A DNA stretch of 64,000 bases from Pseudomonas sp. P8_229 (GTDB taxonomy: Bacteria > Pseudomonadota > Gammaproteobacteria > Pseudomonadales > Pseudomonadaceae): the NCBI RefSeq assembly GCF_034008635.1, contig NZ_CP125378.1, positions 5,952,501 through 6,016,500 of the forward strand. The letters are read 5' to 3'. Positions 45,321 through 58,933 of this stretch are shown one piece after another; the stretch's first letter is position 1, and every line of letters starts with the position of its first letter. Below the pieces are notes generated by a model, which was not told the origin of the DNA, did no database searches, and worked only from the letters and a program-made list of their open reading frames with translations. The translations under genes and the position numbers were made by a program.

Positions 45321-46425
45321 GAGTTCGATCGGATTTGCGGCGCATTTCTTGCCATGGCAATGCAAAACCAACGTGGGAGCGGGCTTGCTCGCGAAGGCGG
45401 AGTGTCAGTCAGTATTCATGTCGCTGACACACCGCCTTCGCGAGCAAGCCCGTCCCACAGGGGATCTGCTGTGGCTTCAGGAATTGCGGTTAGTCAGGGC
45501 GCGCTCCTGCCTTCTTCGAGCAGCGAGCGCGGGCAGCCGAAGTTCAGGCGTACGAACTGTTGGTGCTGATCGCCGAAATCGAGACCGGGCGAGTTTGATC
45601 GGATGTTGGAGGCGTTTCTTGCGATGACAACGCGAAACCAACGTGGGAGCGGGCTTGCTCGCGAAGGCGGAGTGTCAGTCAGTATTCATGTCGCTGACAC
45701 ACCGCTTTCGCGAGCAAGCCCGCTCCCACAGGGGAGCTGCTGTGGCTTCAGGAATTGCGGTTAGTCAGGGCGCGCTGCATGCGGGCGATGCCTTCTTCGA
45801 GCAGCGAGCGCGGGCAGCCGAAGTTCAGGCGCACGTATTGCGGGTGTTGATCACCGAAGTCGAGACCGGGCGAGTTTGATCGGATGTTGGAGGCGTTTCT
45901 TGCGATGACAACGCGAAACCAATGTGGGAGCGGGCTTGCTCGCGAAGGCGGAGTGTCAGTCAGTATTCATGTCGCTGACACACCGCCTTCGCGAGCAAGC
46001 CCGCTCCCACAGGGGAGCTGCTGTGGGTTCAGGAATTGCGGTAAGTCAGGGCGCGCTCCATGCGGGCGATGCCTTCTTCGAGCAGCGAGCGCGGGCAGCC
46101 GAAGTTCAGGCGTACGTATTGCTGGTGTTGATCACCGAAGTCGAGACCGGGCGAGTTTGATCGGATGTTGGAGGCATTTCTTGCGATGACAACGCGAAAC
46201 CAACGTGGGAGCGGGCTTGCTCGCGAAGGCGGAGTGTCAGTCAGTATTCATGTCGCTGACACACCGCCTTCGCGAGCAAGCCCGCTCCCACAGGGGAGCT
46301 GCTGTGGCTTCAGGAATTGCGGTTAGTCAGGGCGCGCTCCATGCGGGCGATGCCTTCTTCGAGCAGCGAGCGCGGGCAGCCGAAGTTCAGGCGTACGAAC
46401 TGTTGGTGCTGATCGCCGAAATCCA
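45321..46425. repeat. Tandem array of four 270/281-bp units: patB 3' end plus REP pair
   Basis: Units begin at 45321, 45591, 45872 and 46153, giving spacings of 270, 281 and 281. Each holds a GATCGGAT spacer, a REP pair (GTGGGAGCGGGCTTGCTCG and inverse, starting at 45373, 45643, 45924 and 46205) and a copy of the last 38 or so codons of patB read on the minus strand, the fourth being the gene itself. Unit 1 lacks 11 bp. Units 1-3 end (minus sense: begin) with a Ser-Pro-Gly-Leu-Asp-Phe-Gly reading not found in the intact gene. The plus-strand frames inside are artefacts. Confidence 0.93.
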
Positions 46426-47464
46426 CACCGGCGCTGAGGCCGACCTTGGCTTGCTCAAGGAAGAACTGCTGCGGATTGTCCAGCCCCAGCGCCGAACAAT
46501 CGAGCCACGCCAGGTATGTGCCTTGCGGCACATTAATGGTCAGGCCCGGCAAGCGGCTGCGCACGGCGTCCACCAGCCAGTCACGGTTGGCTTGCAGGTA
46601 GGTTTTCAATTCGGCGAGCCACGGTGCGCCTTCGCTGTAGGCGACGCGGGTCGCTTCCATGCCCAGCGGGTTGACGCTGTCGACCATGCCGCAGCGGGCG
46701 TGGTTGACGCGTTCGCGCAGGGCTGTGTCCTGGATGATCATGAACGATGTCTTGAGGCCGGCGATGTTGTAAGCCTTGCTGGCCGACATCAGGGTGATGG
46801 TGCGGCCGGCGATTTTCGGGCTCAGGGAGGCGGTCGGAATGTGCACGCGGCCATCGAAGCACAGCTCGGCATGGATCTCGTCGGAGATGATCCAGGCGTC
46901 CTGTGCCGCGCAGATATCGGCCACGGCTTGCAGCTCTTCACGGCCGAACACCTTGCCGATCGGGTTGTGCGGGTTGCTCAGGAGCAGGGCGCCGCCACCG
47001 TTCAGCGCGTCACGCAAGGTGTCGAGCGGGGTGGCGTAGGTGCCGTCAGCCTGGGCGACGAATTCCAGTTCGACCTTGTTCAGCCCCCAATGGCCCGGCG
47101 CATGCCGCAGCGGCGGGTAGTTCGGCACTTGCACCACGACGTTCTGTTGCGGTTGCACCAAGGCTTTCAAAGCCATGTTGAAGCCGGACTCAACGCCCGG
47201 CAGGAAGATCAGCTCCTGCGGTTTGACCTTCCAGGCGAACTTGTTCCACAGGTCGGCGACGATGGCTTCACGCAGGTTGTCCTGGGCCACGCTGTAACCC
47301 ACCAGCGGATGCAGCAGACGCTGTTGCAAGGCCTCGATGATCACCGGCGGCGCGGCGAAATCCATATCAGCGACCCACATCGGCAAAACATCGGCCGGGT
47401 AGCGGCTCCACTTGGTGCTGCCGGTGTTGTGGCGGTCGAATACCTGATCAAAATCGAAAGTCAT
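46310..47464 (-). CDS. patB: PatB/MalY-like cystathionine beta-lyase (PLP C-S lyase)
   Basis: 384 residues of aminotransferase fold-type I. The PLP Lys is in SASKAYNIAG (about 233), NPHNPIG and DEIHAEL form the cofactor site, and NFGCPRSLLEEGIARM is the family C-terminus. These enzymes cleave C-S bonds in cystathionine or cysteine conjugates and are often placed under MalY/PatB. ATG 47464 starts MTFDFDQVFD. Its last 38 codons are repeated three times in the array immediately downstream. Confidence 0.88.
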   Translation of the reverse strand: MTFDFDQVFDRHNTGSTKWSRYPADVLPMWVADMDFAAPPVIIEALQQRLLHPLVGYSVAQDNLREAIVADLWNKFAWKVKPQELIFLPGVESGFNMALKALVQPQQNVVVQVPNYPPLRHAPGHWGLNKVELEFVAQADGTYATPLDTLRDALNGGGALLLSNPHNPIGKVFGREELQAVADICAAQDAWIISDEIHAELCFDGRVHIPTASLSPKIAGRTITLMSASKAYNIAGLKTSFMIIQDTALRERVNHARCGMVDSVNPLGMEATRVAYSEGAPWLAELKTYLQANRDWLVDAVRSRLPGLTINVPQGTYLAWLDCSALGLDNPQQFFLEQAKVGLSAGVDFGDQHQQFVRLNFGCPRSLLEEGIARMERALTNRNS

Positions 47465-47789: not shown

Positions 47790-50700
47790 ATGGATCTCAG
47801 CCGTCGTCAATTCTTCAAGGTCGCCGGTATCGGCCTTGCAGGCTCTAGCCTGGGCGCGTTGGGCATGGCCCCGACGCTGGCCTTCGCCGAGCAGGTGCGC
47901 CACTTCAAGCTTGCCCACACCCATGAAACCCGCAACACCTGTCCGTATTGCTCGGTCGGTTGCGGGTTGATCATGTACAGCCAGGGCGATGCCGCGAAGA
48001 ACGTCGCGCAAAATATCATTCACATCGAGGGCGACGCCGATCACCCGGTCAACCGCGGCACCCTGTGTCCAAAAGGCGCGGGCCTGCTGGACTTCATTCA
48101 TAGCCCGGGCCGCCTGCAATACCCGCAGGTGCGCAAGCCCGGCAGCAGCGAATGGACCCGCGTCAGTTGGGATGAAGCGCTGGATCGCATCGCCGATCTG
48201 ATGAAGACCGACCGTGACGCCAACTTCATCGAGAAGAATGCCACCGGGCAAACGGTGAACCGCTGGCTCACCACCGGGTTCCTCGCCGCGTCGGCAGCGT
48301 CCAACGAGGCGGGCTACATCACCCAGAAGGTGATTCGCAGTCTCGGCATGCTGGGGTTCGATAACCAGGCGCGTGTCTGACACGGCCCGACGGTGGCAAG
48401 TCTTGCCCCGACGTACGGCCGTGGTGCCATGACCAATACCTGGACCGATATCGCTAACGCGAATCTGATCCTGGTGATGGGTGGCAACGCAGCAGAAGCG
48501 CATCCGTGCGGCTTCAAATGGGTGACCGAGGCCAAGGCGCACAACGCCGCCCGGCTGATCGTGGTCGATCCGCGTTTTACCCGTACCGCGTCCGTGGCCG
48601 ACTATTACGCGCCGATCCGCACCGGCACCGACATCGCCTTCATGGGCGGGCTGATCAATTACCTGCTGTCCGAGGACAAGATCCAGCACGAATACGTGCG
48701 CAACTACACCGACGTCTCGTTTATCGTCAAAGAAGGCTATGGCTTTGAAGACGGTATCTTCAGCGGTTACGACGTGGCCAAGCGCACTTATACCGACAAG
48801 TCCGGCTGGGGTTACGAGCTGGGTGAGGATGGGTTTGCCAAGGTCGACCCGACCCTGCAGGATCCGCGCTGCGTCTATCAACTGATGAAGCAGCATTACA
48901 GCCGTTACAACATCGACCTCGCGAGCCAGATCTGCGGGATGCCGGTCGATGCCATGCAGAAAATCTGGGATGAGATTGCCACGTGCTCCACGCCGGGCAA
49001 GACCATGACCATTCTCTATGCGCTCGGCTGGACGCAGCACTCGATTGGCGCGCAGATCATCCGCAGTGCGGCGATGGTGCAATTGCTGCTGGGCAACGTC
49101 GGCATGCCGGGCGGGGGCGTCAATGCTCTGCGCGGACACTCGAACATTCAGGGCCTGACCGACCTCGGGTTGTTGTCCAACTCGTTGCCGGGCTATCTGA
49201 CCCTGGGTGGCGATGCCGAACAGGAGTACACCGCCTTCATCAAAAAACGCACGCAAATGCCGCTGCGTCCGGGTCAGTTGTCCTACTGGCAGAACTACAG
49301 CAAATTCCACGTCAGCCTGATGAAGTCGTGGTACGGCGCCAACGCCACCGTCGAGAACAACTGGAATTACGACTATCTGCCGAAACTCGACATTCCCAAC
49401 TACGACGTCCTGAAGATGTTCGACCTGATGAGCCAGGGCAAGGTCAACGGCTACATGTGCCAAGGCTTCAACCCCATCGCCGCGCTGCCGGACAAGAACC
49501 GGGTGATGGGCGCGCTGGCCAAGCTCAAGTGGCTGGTGGTGATGGACCCGCTGGCGACCGAAACCTCGGAGTTCTGGCAAAACGTCGGGCCGTACAACGA
49601 CGTGAAAAGCGCCGAGATCCAGACCGAAGTCATTCGCCTGCCGACCACCTGCTTTGCCGAGGAGGACGGTTCGCTGGTCAACAGCAGTCGCTGGCTGCAA
49701 TGGCACTGGAAAGGCGCCGACGGCCCTGGCGAAGCGCAGACCGATATTCGTATCATGAGCGAACTGTTCCTGCGCCTGCGCAAGCGTTATCAGGCCGAGG
49801 GCGGCAAATTCGCCGATCCGCTGCTGAAACTGTCGTGGCCGTACAAGATCCCCGACGAGCCATCGCCGGAGGAACTGGCGAAGGAAATCAACGGCAGCGC
49901 CATGGTCGACTTCACCGATGCCAGTGGCGCGATGGTCAAGGCCGGCTCGCAACTGGCGGCGTTCGCTCAGCTCAAGGACGATGGCAGCACCGCGTCCGGT
50001 TGCTGGATCTTCGCCGGCAGCTGGACCGAGGCCGGTAACCAGATGGCCCGGCGCGACAATGCCGACCCGTATGGCATGCACCAGCATCTGGGCTGGGCCT
50101 GGGCGTGGCCGGCCAATCGGCGGATCCTCTACAACCGTGCATCGGCGGATGTCTCGGGCAAACCGTGGGATCCGAAAAAACGCCTCGTATGGTGGAACGG
50201 CAAGGCCTGGGGCGGCACCGACGTGCCGGACTACAAGGCCGATGTGCCGCCGGAAGCCGGGATGAACCCGTTCATCATGAACCCCGAAGGCGTGGCGCGG
50301 TTCTTCGCCGTCGACAAGATGAACGAAGGGCCATTCCCCGAGCACTACGAGCCGTTCGAAACGCCGATCGGCATCAACCCGCTGCACCCGCAAAACAAGA
50401 AAGCCACCAGCAACCCGGCGGCGCGGATCTTCGACTCGGTCTGGGAAAGCCTCGGCGAAGCCAAGGACTTTCCGTACGCCGGCACCAGTTACCGGCTCAC
50501 CGAGCACTTCCATTTCTGGAGCAAGCATTGCAAGTTGAATGCGATTGCCCAGCCCGAGCAGTTCGTCGAAATCGGCGAAGTGCTGGCGAAGGAGAAGGGC
50601 ATCGCCGCCGGGGATCGGGTGCGGGTCAGCTGCAAACGCGGGTTCATCGAGGCGGTTGCGGTGGTGACCAAACGGATCCGGCCGCTGCAGGTCAACGGCC

Positions 50701-50855
50701 AGGTGGTGCATCAGATCGGCATCCCGCTGCACTGGGGTTTCACCGGTCAGACGCGTCACGGTTACCTGACCAACACCCTGGTGCCGTTCCTCGGCGACGG
50801 CAACACACAGACCCCGGAATCCAAGTCATTCCTGGTCAACGTGGAGAAACTATAA
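47790..50855 (+). CDS. fdnG: Formate dehydrogenase-N major subunit, selenocysteine enzyme
   Basis: One gene of 1022 codons in which the in-frame TGA at 48378-48380 (codon 197) is read as selenocysteine. The sequence across it, VDNQARV-like NQARV then HGPTVASLAP, is that of E. coli FdnG/FdoG at Sec196. The N-terminus has a Tat signal (SRRQFFK) and a [4Fe-4S] motif CPYCSVGCG, followed by bis-MGD molybdopterin domains. It oxidises formate on the periplasmic side and passes electrons to FdnH and FdnI. Length, order and the nearby sel genes all support recoding. Whether it is the FdnG (nitrate-linked) or FdoG (aerobic) type cannot be told from sequence. Confidence 0.95.
48378..48423 (+). promoter_or_regulatory. 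Selenocysteine UGA and bacterial SECIS hairpin
   Basis: TGA at 48378 is followed by an outer stem CACGGCC (48381-48387) / GGCCGTG (48417-48423) and an inner stem GGCAA / TTGCC whose tip holds AAGTCTT. This is the GUCU-type apical loop that SelB binds immediately 3' of the Sec codon. Confidence 0.88.
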
Positions 50856-56828: not shown

Positions 56829-56924
56829 GGAAGGCAATCGCGCCCGGTGGCGCGGCCGGGCTTCAAACCCGGTTGGGGACGGCATCCGTTCCCGGGCAGG
56901 TTCGACTCCGGCTGCCTTCCGCCA
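56829..56924 (+). tRNA. selC: Selenocysteine tRNA (anticodon TCA)
   Basis: A 96-base tRNA with an eight-base acceptor stem (GGAAGGCA / TGCCTTCC) and encoded GCCA end. The D stem is six bases (CGCGCC / GGCGCG) with a four-base loop and the anticodon stem is CCGGG / CCCGG around CTTCAAA. A long extra arm (GGGGACGG / CCGTTCCC) is also typical of tRNA(Sec). The T stem GCAGG / CCGGC holds one A-G mismatch. It lies 7 bp after selB. Confidence 0.97.
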
Positions 56925-56932
56925 ATCCCCTT

Positions 56933-57541
56933 GTAGGAATGAGCCTGCTCGCGATAGCGGTGGGTCATTCAATGCTGATGTTGCCTGACTTGGCGCCTTC
57001 GCGAGCAAGCCCGCTCCCACAGGGAGCTGTGTTCCAGGCAGTTCCTGCACGTTGCTGTGAGGCTGTGAGAGACCCCCGTCGATCTCTGACACCCCACAAA
57101 ACCAAGGTGGGAGTGGGCTTGCTCACGAAAGCGGTGTGACATTCAACGCTGATGTTGCCTGACACGCCGCCTTCGCGAGCAAGCCCGCTCCCACTGGGGA
57201 CTGTGTTCCAGGCAGTTCCTGCACTTTTGCTGTGAGGCGGTGAGATACCTGTCGATCTCTGACACCCCACAAAACCAAGGTGGGAGTGGGTTTGCTCACG
57301 AAAGCGGTGTGACATTCAATGCTGATGTTGCCTGACTTGGCGCCTTCGCGAGCAAGCCCGCTCCCACAGGGAGCTGTGTTCCAGGCAGTTCCTGCACTTT
57401 TGCTGTGAGGCGGTGAGATACCTGTCGATCTCTGACACCCCACAAAACCAAGGTGGGAGTGGGCTTGCTCACGAAAGCGGTGTGACATTCAACGCTGATG
57501 TTGCCTGACACGCCGCCTTCGCGAGCAGGCTCACTCCTACA
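56933..57541. repeat. Tandem array of four 173-bp REP-containing units
   Basis: Units start at 56933, 57107, 57280 and 57453 (spacings 174, 173, 173). Each has an outer palindrome pair (GTGGGAGTGGGCTTGCTCAC and GCGAGCAAGCCCGCTCCCAC in the inner units) with a GATGTTGCCTGAC spacer, then a unique block of about 80 bp (GTTCCAGGCAGTTCCTGCAC, GATCTCTGACACC). The last unit ends after its palindrome pair. The array fills the gap between tRNA(Sec) and the aminotransferase gene. Confidence 0.93.
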
Positions 57542-57550
57542 GGGTATGGG

Positions 57551-58933
57551 TTACAGGCGCCCGTATTCGCGGGCCGTGCGATCGACGGCGATGCGGGTTT
57601 TGTCGACCAACTCATCGAGTTCGGCCCGGGTGGCGATCAGGGCCGGGGCCATGATCATCCGGCCGAGGGTTGAGCGAATGATCAAGCCTTCCTCAAACCC
57701 GATGGTGCGGCAGCGCCAGGCGATGTCGTTTTCGTTGGCGAAACGCTTGCGGGTGGCTTTGTCTTCGGCGAATTGCAGCGCGGCGACCAGACCGACGCCC
57801 TGAATTTCACCCACCAGCGGGTGGTTGCCGAACACTTCGCGCAGGCAATTCTGCAGGTACGGGCCGGTGTCGTTTTTCACCTGTTTGACCACGCCTTCGT
57901 CGCGCAGGGCCTTGAGGTTGGCAATCGCCACCGCAGCAGCCACCGGATGCCCGGAGTAGGTCAGACCGTGGGCGAACACGCCGCCTTTTTCTACAAGCGC
58001 CTCGGCCATGCGTCGCGACAGGATCAACCCGCCCATGGGGATGTAACCGGAGGTCAGGCCTTTGGCGATGGACAGGGTATCCGGTTCGAAGCCAAAGGCC
58101 TGGTGCGCAAACCACTCGCCGGTACGGCCGAAACCGCCAATCACTTCGTCGGCGCACAGCAGTACGTCGTACTTGCGGCAGATGCGCTGGATTTCCGGCC
58201 AGTAAGTGGCGGGCGGAATGATCATGCCGCCGGCGCCCTGGAAGGGTTCGGCGACGAACGCGGCGACTTTGTCGGCGCCCAGTTCGAGAATCTTGTCTTC
58301 CAGTTGTTTCGCCGCGCGCAGGCCGAATTCTTCGGGGCTGAGGTCACCTTCATGGGCGAACCAGTACGGCTCGTCGATGTGCGCCACGTCAGGGATGGTG
58401 CCGCCCATTTCGTGCATGAACTTCATGCCGCCCAGCGCCGTCGCAGCGAGGGTCGAGCCGTGATAGCCGTTCCAGCGGCCGATCATGATTTTCTTCTCGG
58501 GCTGGCCCATGACCTGCCAGAACTTGCGCACGGTGCGGATCAGCACCTCGTTGGCTTCGGAGCCGGAGTTGGTGTAGATCGCGTGGCTGTAGTGCTTGGG
58601 CAACAGGCTGAAGAGCAGCTCGGACAGCTCGATCACCTGCGGGTGAGTGGTGTGGAAGAACATGTTGTAGTAGGGCAGTTGTTCCAGCTGCGCCGTCGCG
58701 GCGGCGGCCAAGTCCCTGCGCCCGTAACCGAGGTTGGTGCACCACAGGCCGGACATGCCGTCCAGGTAACGATTGCCGTCGTTGTCCCACAACGCCAGGC
58801 GATCACCGCTGACCATCACCCGCGGGCCTTCCTCGTTGAGGGCCTTCTGGTCGACGAACGCGTGTATGTGGTGGGCGGCGTCGGCGGCCTGGTAATCGCG
58901 GGTACTGCGAGTCGGATCGAATTCGGCGGACAT
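57551..58933 (-). CDS. Class III aminotransferase (omega-amino acid/polyamine:pyruvate type)
   Basis: 460 residues with the PLP Lys in SIAKGLTSGY (about 281), the cofactor-binding loop NSGSEANE and DEVIGGFGRTG. Sequence features (AADAAHHIHAF, GRMIMAPALI) match the beta-alanine/polyamine:pyruvate branch (SpuC-like). The exact amine donor is unknown. ATG 58933 with GGAG upstream is chosen over ATG 58972. The gene is divergent from a TetR regulator. Confidence 0.87.
   Translation of the reverse strand: MSAEFDPTRSTRDYQAADAAHHIHAFVDQKALNEEGPRVMVSGDRLALWDNDGNRYLDGMSGLWCTNLGYGRRDLAAAATAQLEQLPYYNMFFHTTHPQVIELSELLFSLLPKHYSHAIYTNSGSEANEVLIRTVRKFWQVMGQPEKKIMIGRWNGYHGSTLAATALGGMKFMHEMGGTIPDVAHIDEPYWFAHEGDLSPEEFGLRAAKQLEDKILELGADKVAAFVAEPFQGAGGMIIPPATYWPEIQRICRKYDVLLCADEVIGGFGRTGEWFAHQAFGFEPDTLSIAKGLTSGYIPMGGLILSRRMAEALVEKGGVFAHGLTYSGHPVAAAVAIANLKALRDEGVVKQVKNDTGPYLQNCLREVFGNHPLVGEIQGVGLVAALQFAEDKATRKRFANENDIAWRCRTIGFEEGLIIRSTLGRMIMAPALIATRAELDELVDKTRIAVDRTAREYGRL

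What the first reader, a model, noticed from the sequence alone, without database searches (positions are those of the whole stretch)
45321..46425. Tandem amplification of a REP pair together with the 3' end of patB
Four units of 270, 281, 281 bp and the gene itself each carry one REP pair and the last 38 or so codons of patB. Units 1-3 are clear copies but differ at the same codons in two ways. Units 1 and 4 share the Phe-type reading around DQHQQ, while 2 and 3 read Tyr at that place. Units 1-3 share a different 5' border (Ser-Pro-Gly-Leu-Asp) from the intact gene. This looks like repeat expansion plus gene conversion driven by REP-associated events, with the gene's end acting as a seed. The extra copies are free of an open gene, so they could serve as donors of variant C-termini.
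Basis: partly seen in the sequence, partly recalled or inferred. Interest (0 to 1): 0.72.

Follow-up and report, generated by a model that had tools for sequence, protein, structure and literature searches.

The report
Gene-end repeats spreading between REP palindromes
In this Pseudomonas, a common short palindromic repeat has been copied in tandem together with the end of the neighbouring gene patB, and one copy of that package, like copies of a second such package, is also found at distant sites in the chromosome; the tandem copies are ordinary, the spreading is less so.

Summary
In detail: window 45321-46431 holds four tandem units (spacing 270, 281, 281), each a REPIN plus the last 40 codons of patB. 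This is a known kind: tandem REPIN clusters with flanking DNA are described, and 4 of 12 REPIN arrays read here enter a gene by six codons or more. None of the relatives' patB loci examined has it. The mosaic is real: patB and unit 1 share a 24-bp block that units 2 and 3 lack. The donor-reservoir idea is not supported.

New: one patB unit lies 180 kb away beside sfnG, with the array's own junction. The gap there exceeds that of the three relatives with a single REPIN of the same arm type by 282-284 bp, about one unit. A second module, carrying the agmatinase end, sits at its native locus and three others: at one of these two relatives have the bare REPIN, at the window's second array the right edge is a hybrid REPIN, and at the third 0 of 16 relatives has a REP arm. 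I infer recombination between REPINs; RAYT action is not excluded. At the window's second array only the right flank is shared with relatives.

The parts
45321..45372 (-). native spacer between REPIN of unit 1 and the SDR gene; its distal part (AATCCGATCGAACTC...) recurs downstream of patB in several relatives
45373..45458 (-). REPIN of unit 1 (1 bp lost)
45478..45587 (-). patB tail of unit 1, with a 10-bp frameshifting deletion and a patB-like block (alignment positions 13-36)
45588..45642 (-). internal spacer and duplication junction
45643..45729 (-). REPIN of unit 2
45748..45868 (-). patB tail of unit 2 (reads PGLDFGDQHPQYV...)
45869..45923 (-). internal spacer and junction
45924..46010 (-). 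REPIN of unit 3
46029..46149 (-). patB tail of unit 3 (reads PGLDFGDQHQQYV...)
46150..46204 (-). internal spacer and junction
46205..46291 (-). REPIN directly downstream of the intact patB (unit 4)
46310..47464 (-). intact patB (PatB family C-S lyase, TIGR04350)
56931..57556 (.). second REPIN array (period 173) carrying the agmatinase-end module; its rightmost REPIN is a hybrid whose right arm and flank match the single REPIN of relative G254; an ectopic copy of the module native at G000:C1:6235341-6236244

Best explanation
A REPIN downstream of patB was duplicated in tandem together with the last 40 codons of patB and about 50 bp of downstream spacer. Further copies arose and were partly homogenised by recombination within the array; later the start of patB's own tail, and then that of unit 1, took a different allele. 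Because the units are separated by REPINs, the array shares homology with the many other REPIN sites. Recombination between an array REPIN and a resident REPIN elsewhere then inserted units, gene end included, at the resident REPIN. Shown: the array, the mosaic, the shared junction, the size difference of about one unit at sfnG, single REPINs at the same place in relatives at sfnG and 5.69 Mb, and the hybrid right-hand REPIN of the window's second array. Inferred: that ordinary homologous recombination or gene conversion did it, the order of events, and which haplotype is older. No host function is needed.
For: patB to sfnG: L002 carries REPIN, spacer, patB tail, REPIN with the array's own duplication junction. 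The loop string GCGACATGAAT was found at 5 of 70 REPIN positions matched (at least three sites were fetched twice), all five in the patB array or at sfnG. The DUF1348-sfnG gap is 453 bp in G000 and 171, 169 and 171 bp in G162, G337 and G216, which have one REPIN of the same arm type; in G000 the first two arms lie at offsets 27 and 84, as in G162. 11 of 17 relatives with DUF1348 beside sfnG have a REPIN there of three related arm types; 0 of 20 relatives with an sfnG locus have the tail. Agmatinase module: native locus orthologous in G254, also in tandem; 15 of 16 relatives have no match, and 0 of 16 have it at the three ectopic loci. 5.69 Mb: G254 and G162 have the same REPIN, both flanks shared, without the module. 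Window locus: the rightmost REPIN has an array-type left arm and a right arm and flank matching G254's single REPIN; the leftmost has the G254-type left arm (30 of 31 bases) and an array-type right arm; 626 - 107 = 519 = 3 x 173.
Against: At the window locus the left flank (tRNA-Sec side) matches none of 16 relatives; only the right flank does. So the left arm may come from another REPIN, the locus was also rearranged, and the 3 x 173 figure could be chance. At 635 kb, 0 of 16 relatives has a REP arm, so a REPIN arrived there first or the module moved with its own REPINs. At 5.69 Mb the gain is about 109 bp, a module and half a REP, not a whole unit. At sfnG resident and array arms are the same type, so hybrids cannot be told, and both REPINs carry the array-like loop. 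Five of the 17 relatives have another palindrome or none at sfnG, and G312 a 1430-bp gap. REPIN arms are short and divergent for RecA. One genome per species was available.
Confidence: 0.6

Rival explanations
1. RAYT-mediated movement: two REPINs flanking a gene end are mobilised together like a composite element, or RAYT cuts and joins two REPINs site-specifically, so that cassettes move between REPIN sites.
For: Two genes match NF047646, REP-associated tyrosine transposase; one lies among REPIN arrays of related arm type, the other beside GAGCCTGC-type arms. TnpA-REP of E. coli cleaves and recombines single-stranded REPs in vitro (passages of PMC8266576). The 635 kb site lacks REP arms in 16 of 16 relatives. 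Both sfnG REPINs carry the array-like loop.
Against: The edge REPINs of the window's second array are of normal size, with no extra complete arms; at sfnG and 5.69 Mb a REPIN stands at about the same offset as in relatives.
Confidence: 0.25
2. Purely local tandem slippage and unequal crossing-over explain the arrays, and the distant copies are unrelated events (for example larger rearrangements between REPINs).
For: Tandem REPIN clusters are common (16 in SBW25); a deletion of five of six tandem REPINs was seen in an E. coli mutation accumulation line (passage of PMC8049555). 6 of 8 passenger families searched gave no match elsewhere. The left flank of the window's second array was exchanged.
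Against: The sfnG copy has the array's own junction, and the gain there is about one unit with both flanks shared.
Confidence: 0.12
3. The tail copies are a silent reservoir that feeds variant C-termini into patB by gene conversion.
For: A conversion-like block is shared by patB and unit 1.
Against: Copies carry replacements and a frameshift; no unit-specific letter is seen in patB; patB's block resembles patB of other species such as G230.
Confidence: 0.03

Closest known systems
Tandem REPIN clusters of Pseudomonas fluorescens SBW25 (Bertels and Rainey 2011, PMC3116915; passages seen)
   [quoted passage not shown] several per genome; RAYT in the genome.
   Different: The passages seen do not mention a unit reaching 40 codons into a gene, nor units found again at other REPIN sites.
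[quoted passage not shown] passages seen)
   Same: REPs reiterated in tandem with flanking DNA; amplification and clustering suggested to be correlated.
   Different: The passages seen do not describe dispersal of the flanking DNA.
REP evolution by gene conversion (Higgins 1988; only the title seen, in reference lists)
   Same: Exchange between REP sites has been raised in print.
   Different: Here the exchange would carry a passenger, so that donor and length can be read.
REP-mediated chromosomal duplications in Salmonella (recalled, nothing seen)
   Same: Homologous recombination between REPs.
   Different: Those are large duplications; here a unit of about 280 bp appears at a distant REPIN site.

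Membership tests
REPIN | Two REPs in inverted orientation forming a long hairpin | tested here: met
   (one of the four folded)
REPIN | High copy number | tested here: met
   586 forward and 595 reverse REP matches (3 mismatches or fewer) against 0 and 0 for the control pattern read backwards
REPIN | RAYT in the genome with related REPs beside it | tested here: met
Tandem REPIN cluster | Nearly identical REPINs repeated head to tail with flanking sequence | tested here: met
   definition
Composite transposon | Passenger bounded by two mobile elements, inserted at a new site with target duplication | tested here: inconclusive
   Bounded at sfnG, but the left REPIN keeps the offset seen in G162; target duplications were not searched for
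Silent donor cassette array (pilS or vls type, recalled) | Donor copies kept readable and transferred into the expression site | tested here: not met
   Frameshift and replacements in copies; no unit-specific letter in this one genome's patB

The most novel reading that the evidence does not exclude
REPINs work as genome-wide exchange sockets: a RAYT or the recombination machinery swaps DNA between REPINs at matched positions, so that gene ends captured in tandem arrays circulate as cassettes, often in whole-unit steps, between hundreds of intergenic sites.
Probability: 0.14. Interest if true: 0.78.

Novelty: new variant of a known kind. Interest (0 to 1): 0.48.

Why it matters
Whether REPs are spread or homogenised by gene conversion was asked in print by 1988, but REPINs are too alike to show the donor. 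A passenger gene end, with its own junction and alleles, tags the donor. That makes REPIN-to-REPIN exchange testable by comparing strains: unit-length steps, hybrid arms, resident REPINs. It would also make REPINs a source of gene-end duplication and of ectopic homology across the chromosome.

Tried and rejected
Plasmid search with unit 3 gave matches over the REPIN part only in 3 Pseudomonas records, none covering 80% of the query. The 12 genomes with two matches were re-searched: the second matches were stretches of 24-48 bases, or 114 bases at 72% in G051 and G287; I did not read their surroundings. One search scored only 2 candidates per genome and missed the known sfnG copy in G000, so it cannot exclude distant copies in relatives; one search scored 40 of 642 candidates and 40 of 62, so further copies in G000 could be missed too. 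Sliding identity of patB gave no single donor; of 23 relatives compared G254 is nearest over the whole gene, 91.8%. Six other passenger families (pepN, sulfatase, spacers of L181, L183, L184, L185) gave no match outside their own arrays; short spacers are easily missed. Arrays B1 and B2 were not searched elsewhere. Of the 14 stretches, L189-L194 were left out of the array count: no REPIN tandem array in them (L191 has a repeat without REP spacing). Of the 80 loci only the 8 Pseudomonas ones were used. At 5.69 Mb could not delimit the gap in G231 and probably not in G396, G097 and G373. Paper searches touching dispersal of REPIN flanks: (one found nothing; two listed 15 of 392 and 10 of 7,501); none of the listed titles and abstract openings describes it, but the library lacks most subscription journals and I saw passages of four papers only.

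The re-check showed that the left flank of the window's second array is not shared with any of 16 relatives; I therefore withdrew the claim that this array is shown to lie inside one resident REPIN, lowered the best explanation from 0.68 to 0.6 and the novel case from 0.15 to 0.14, and raised the two main rivals (0.2 to 0.25; 0.08 to 0.12).

Full report
1. What is there. The window is G000:C1:5952501-6016500 of a 6,365,050-bp, one-contig Pseudomonas genome. Array 45321-46431 has period 281 and 4.0 copies. In patB's direction it runs: patB with tail 4, REPIN, spacer, tail 3, REPIN, spacer, tail 2, REPIN, spacer, tail 1, REPIN, native spacer, SDR gene. patB itself is open and matches TIGR04350.

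2. The mosaic. Over the 124-column tail alignment patB differs from unit 3 at 9 sites, 8 within 30 bp, from unit 2 at 11, 9 within 30 bp (permutation p about 0.001 each), and from the sfnG copy at 10, 8 within 30 bp (p 0.0035). Unit 1 follows units 2 and 3 at positions 8 and 10 and patB at 13, 19, 25, 31, 34 and 36, a block of 24 bp. The sfnG copy follows units 2 and 3 except at 36, where it has the Phe letter. The units' Pro-Gly-Leu-Asp, with Ser before it, is the reading of 4 of 29 relatives; patB's Ala-Gly-Val-Asp is shared with G230 and G207. I infer that the array formed from a Pro-Gly-Leu-Asp patB, that patB was later partly replaced by another allele, and that unit 1 then took a short tract from patB. 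The polarity is inferred: G254, nearest over the whole gene, carries some of the patB-type letters, which speaks for caution.

3. How ordinary is the array? Two arbitrarily placed 200-kb runs hold 2 REPIN arrays of period 60 or more, the window 2 more. With eight arrays chosen from REP spacing I read 12: patB, window 56946, L181-L188, B1 and B2. In four the unit enters a neighbouring gene by six codons or more: patB 40; pepN-like L187 about 23; sulfatase L188 about 15; agmatinase L186 six and stop. By eye L184 and B1 share about five codons. The eight were picked for their spacing, so 4 of 12 is no rate. Tandem clusters with flanks are described in SBW25, 16 of them, and REP clusters with flanking DNA of variable length in PMC3733652. 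So the array is a long-unit member of a known kind.

4. Relatives. 199 of 199 genus genomes matched the patB protein search, many only through weaker, probably paralogous hits. A second tail near patB was seen in 0 of 29 relatives (L090-L118) and 0 of 8 named loci with the flanks held; 29 loci, partly the same genomes, have one tail each (29 of 217 relatives with a match). Many carry a single REPIN or another palindrome there.

5. The copy at sfnG. G000:C1:6179580-6179951 carries REPIN, spacer, patB tail, REPIN between a DUF1348 gene and sfnG. The junction between spacer and tail is the array's, with one base different beside it. The loop string GCGACATGAAT occurs only there and in the patB array among 70 REPIN positions matched (unit 1's REPIN was missed by the pattern). 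Of 30 relatives searched, 20 have an sfnG locus; 17 of the 20 have DUF1348 next door, 16 with a gap of 97-171 bp and G312 with 1430 bp. Eleven of the 17 have a REPIN at offsets 25-27 and 82-85, six another palindrome or none. The tail is in 0 of 20. G000's gap is 453 bp: 282-284 more than in G162, G337 and G216, which have the same arm type, and 282-293 more than in the 11 with a REPIN as a whole (gaps 160-171); one unit is 281.

6. A second travelling module. The query of eight array spacers showed that the spacer of the window's other array and that of L186 are relatives, with further copies at 635 kb and 5.69 Mb. At L186 the module carries the last six codons and stop of an agmatinase gene. 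That locus is orthologous in G254, also with tandem copies, flanks at 89-92%. 15 of 16 relatives have no match to the module, and 0 of 16 have it at the three ectopic loci.

7. Into REPINs? At 5.69 Mb, G254 and G162 have the same REPIN at the same place without the module; G000 gained about 109 bp, a module plus half a REP. At the window locus (56931-57556) G254 has a single REPIN with GTAGGAGTGAGCCTGCTCGCGATAGC arms. In G000 the rightmost REPIN has an array-type left arm and a right arm and flank like G254's; the leftmost has the G254-type left arm, 30 of 31 bases, and an array-type right arm. The lengths differ by 519 = 3 x 173. But the sequence left of it, with tRNA-Sec, matches none of 16 relatives' loci. 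The hybrid right edge is therefore firm, the left edge is not, and a rearrangement ending at a REPIN has also happened. The two switch points differ (start of the loop; right arm), so a single crossover is not enough. At 635 kb 0 of 16 relatives has a REP arm; this site does not fit recombination into a resident REPIN without an earlier REPIN insertion.

8. Mechanism. A gain of about one unit at a resident REPIN with both flanks shared (sfnG), a bare REPIN in relatives at 5.69 Mb and a hybrid REPIN in the window point to recombination between REPINs (0.6). RAYT-driven exchange or composite movement is the main rival (0.25): two RAYTs are present, and E. coli TnpA-REP recombines REPs in vitro. 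A donor role for patB is not supported.

9. Frequency. Of eight passenger families searched in the own genome (patB; agmatinase, met in two of the queried arrays; pepN; sulfatase; L181, L183, L184, L185), two have matches at other loci (both searches scored only part of their candidates).

10. Novelty. The array: known kind. Dispersal of gene-end units between REPIN sites: not found in the paper searches listed under Tried and rejected, whose reach is limited.

Noticed in passing
window 56829-57556: tRNA-Sec is followed within a few bases by the second REPIN array; in 16 of 16 relatives the gene on the array's right has no tRNA-Sec within the flank held, so this junction at a REPIN is a rearrangement.
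   Followed up: partly
window 47790-50855: A gene that looks like formate dehydrogenase alpha (recalled) meets an in-frame TGA at 48378-48380 and continues in the same frame; with tRNA-Sec in the same window this looks like selenocysteine. Not read through or tested.
   Followed up: no
L181:1592-3353: A 13-copy 136-bp REPIN array whose variant units are interspersed in a patchy order, and whose period-271 reading scores slightly higher.
   Followed up: no
L183:1506-2426: REPINs in this array mix two REP arm types (GGGCTTGC on one side, GAGCCTGC on the other), suggesting that hybrid REPINs are common (by eye).
   Followed up: no
L179:900-2500: A RAYT gene lies between REPIN arrays, some of whose arms carry an inserted GTCGGAACGCCGCCCGG stretch.
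   Followed up: no
L187:958-1577: Three 210-bp units each carry a REPIN and about 23 codons of the end of an aminopeptidase N-like gene; the middle copy differs from the outer two in the tail, as in patB.
   Followed up: partly
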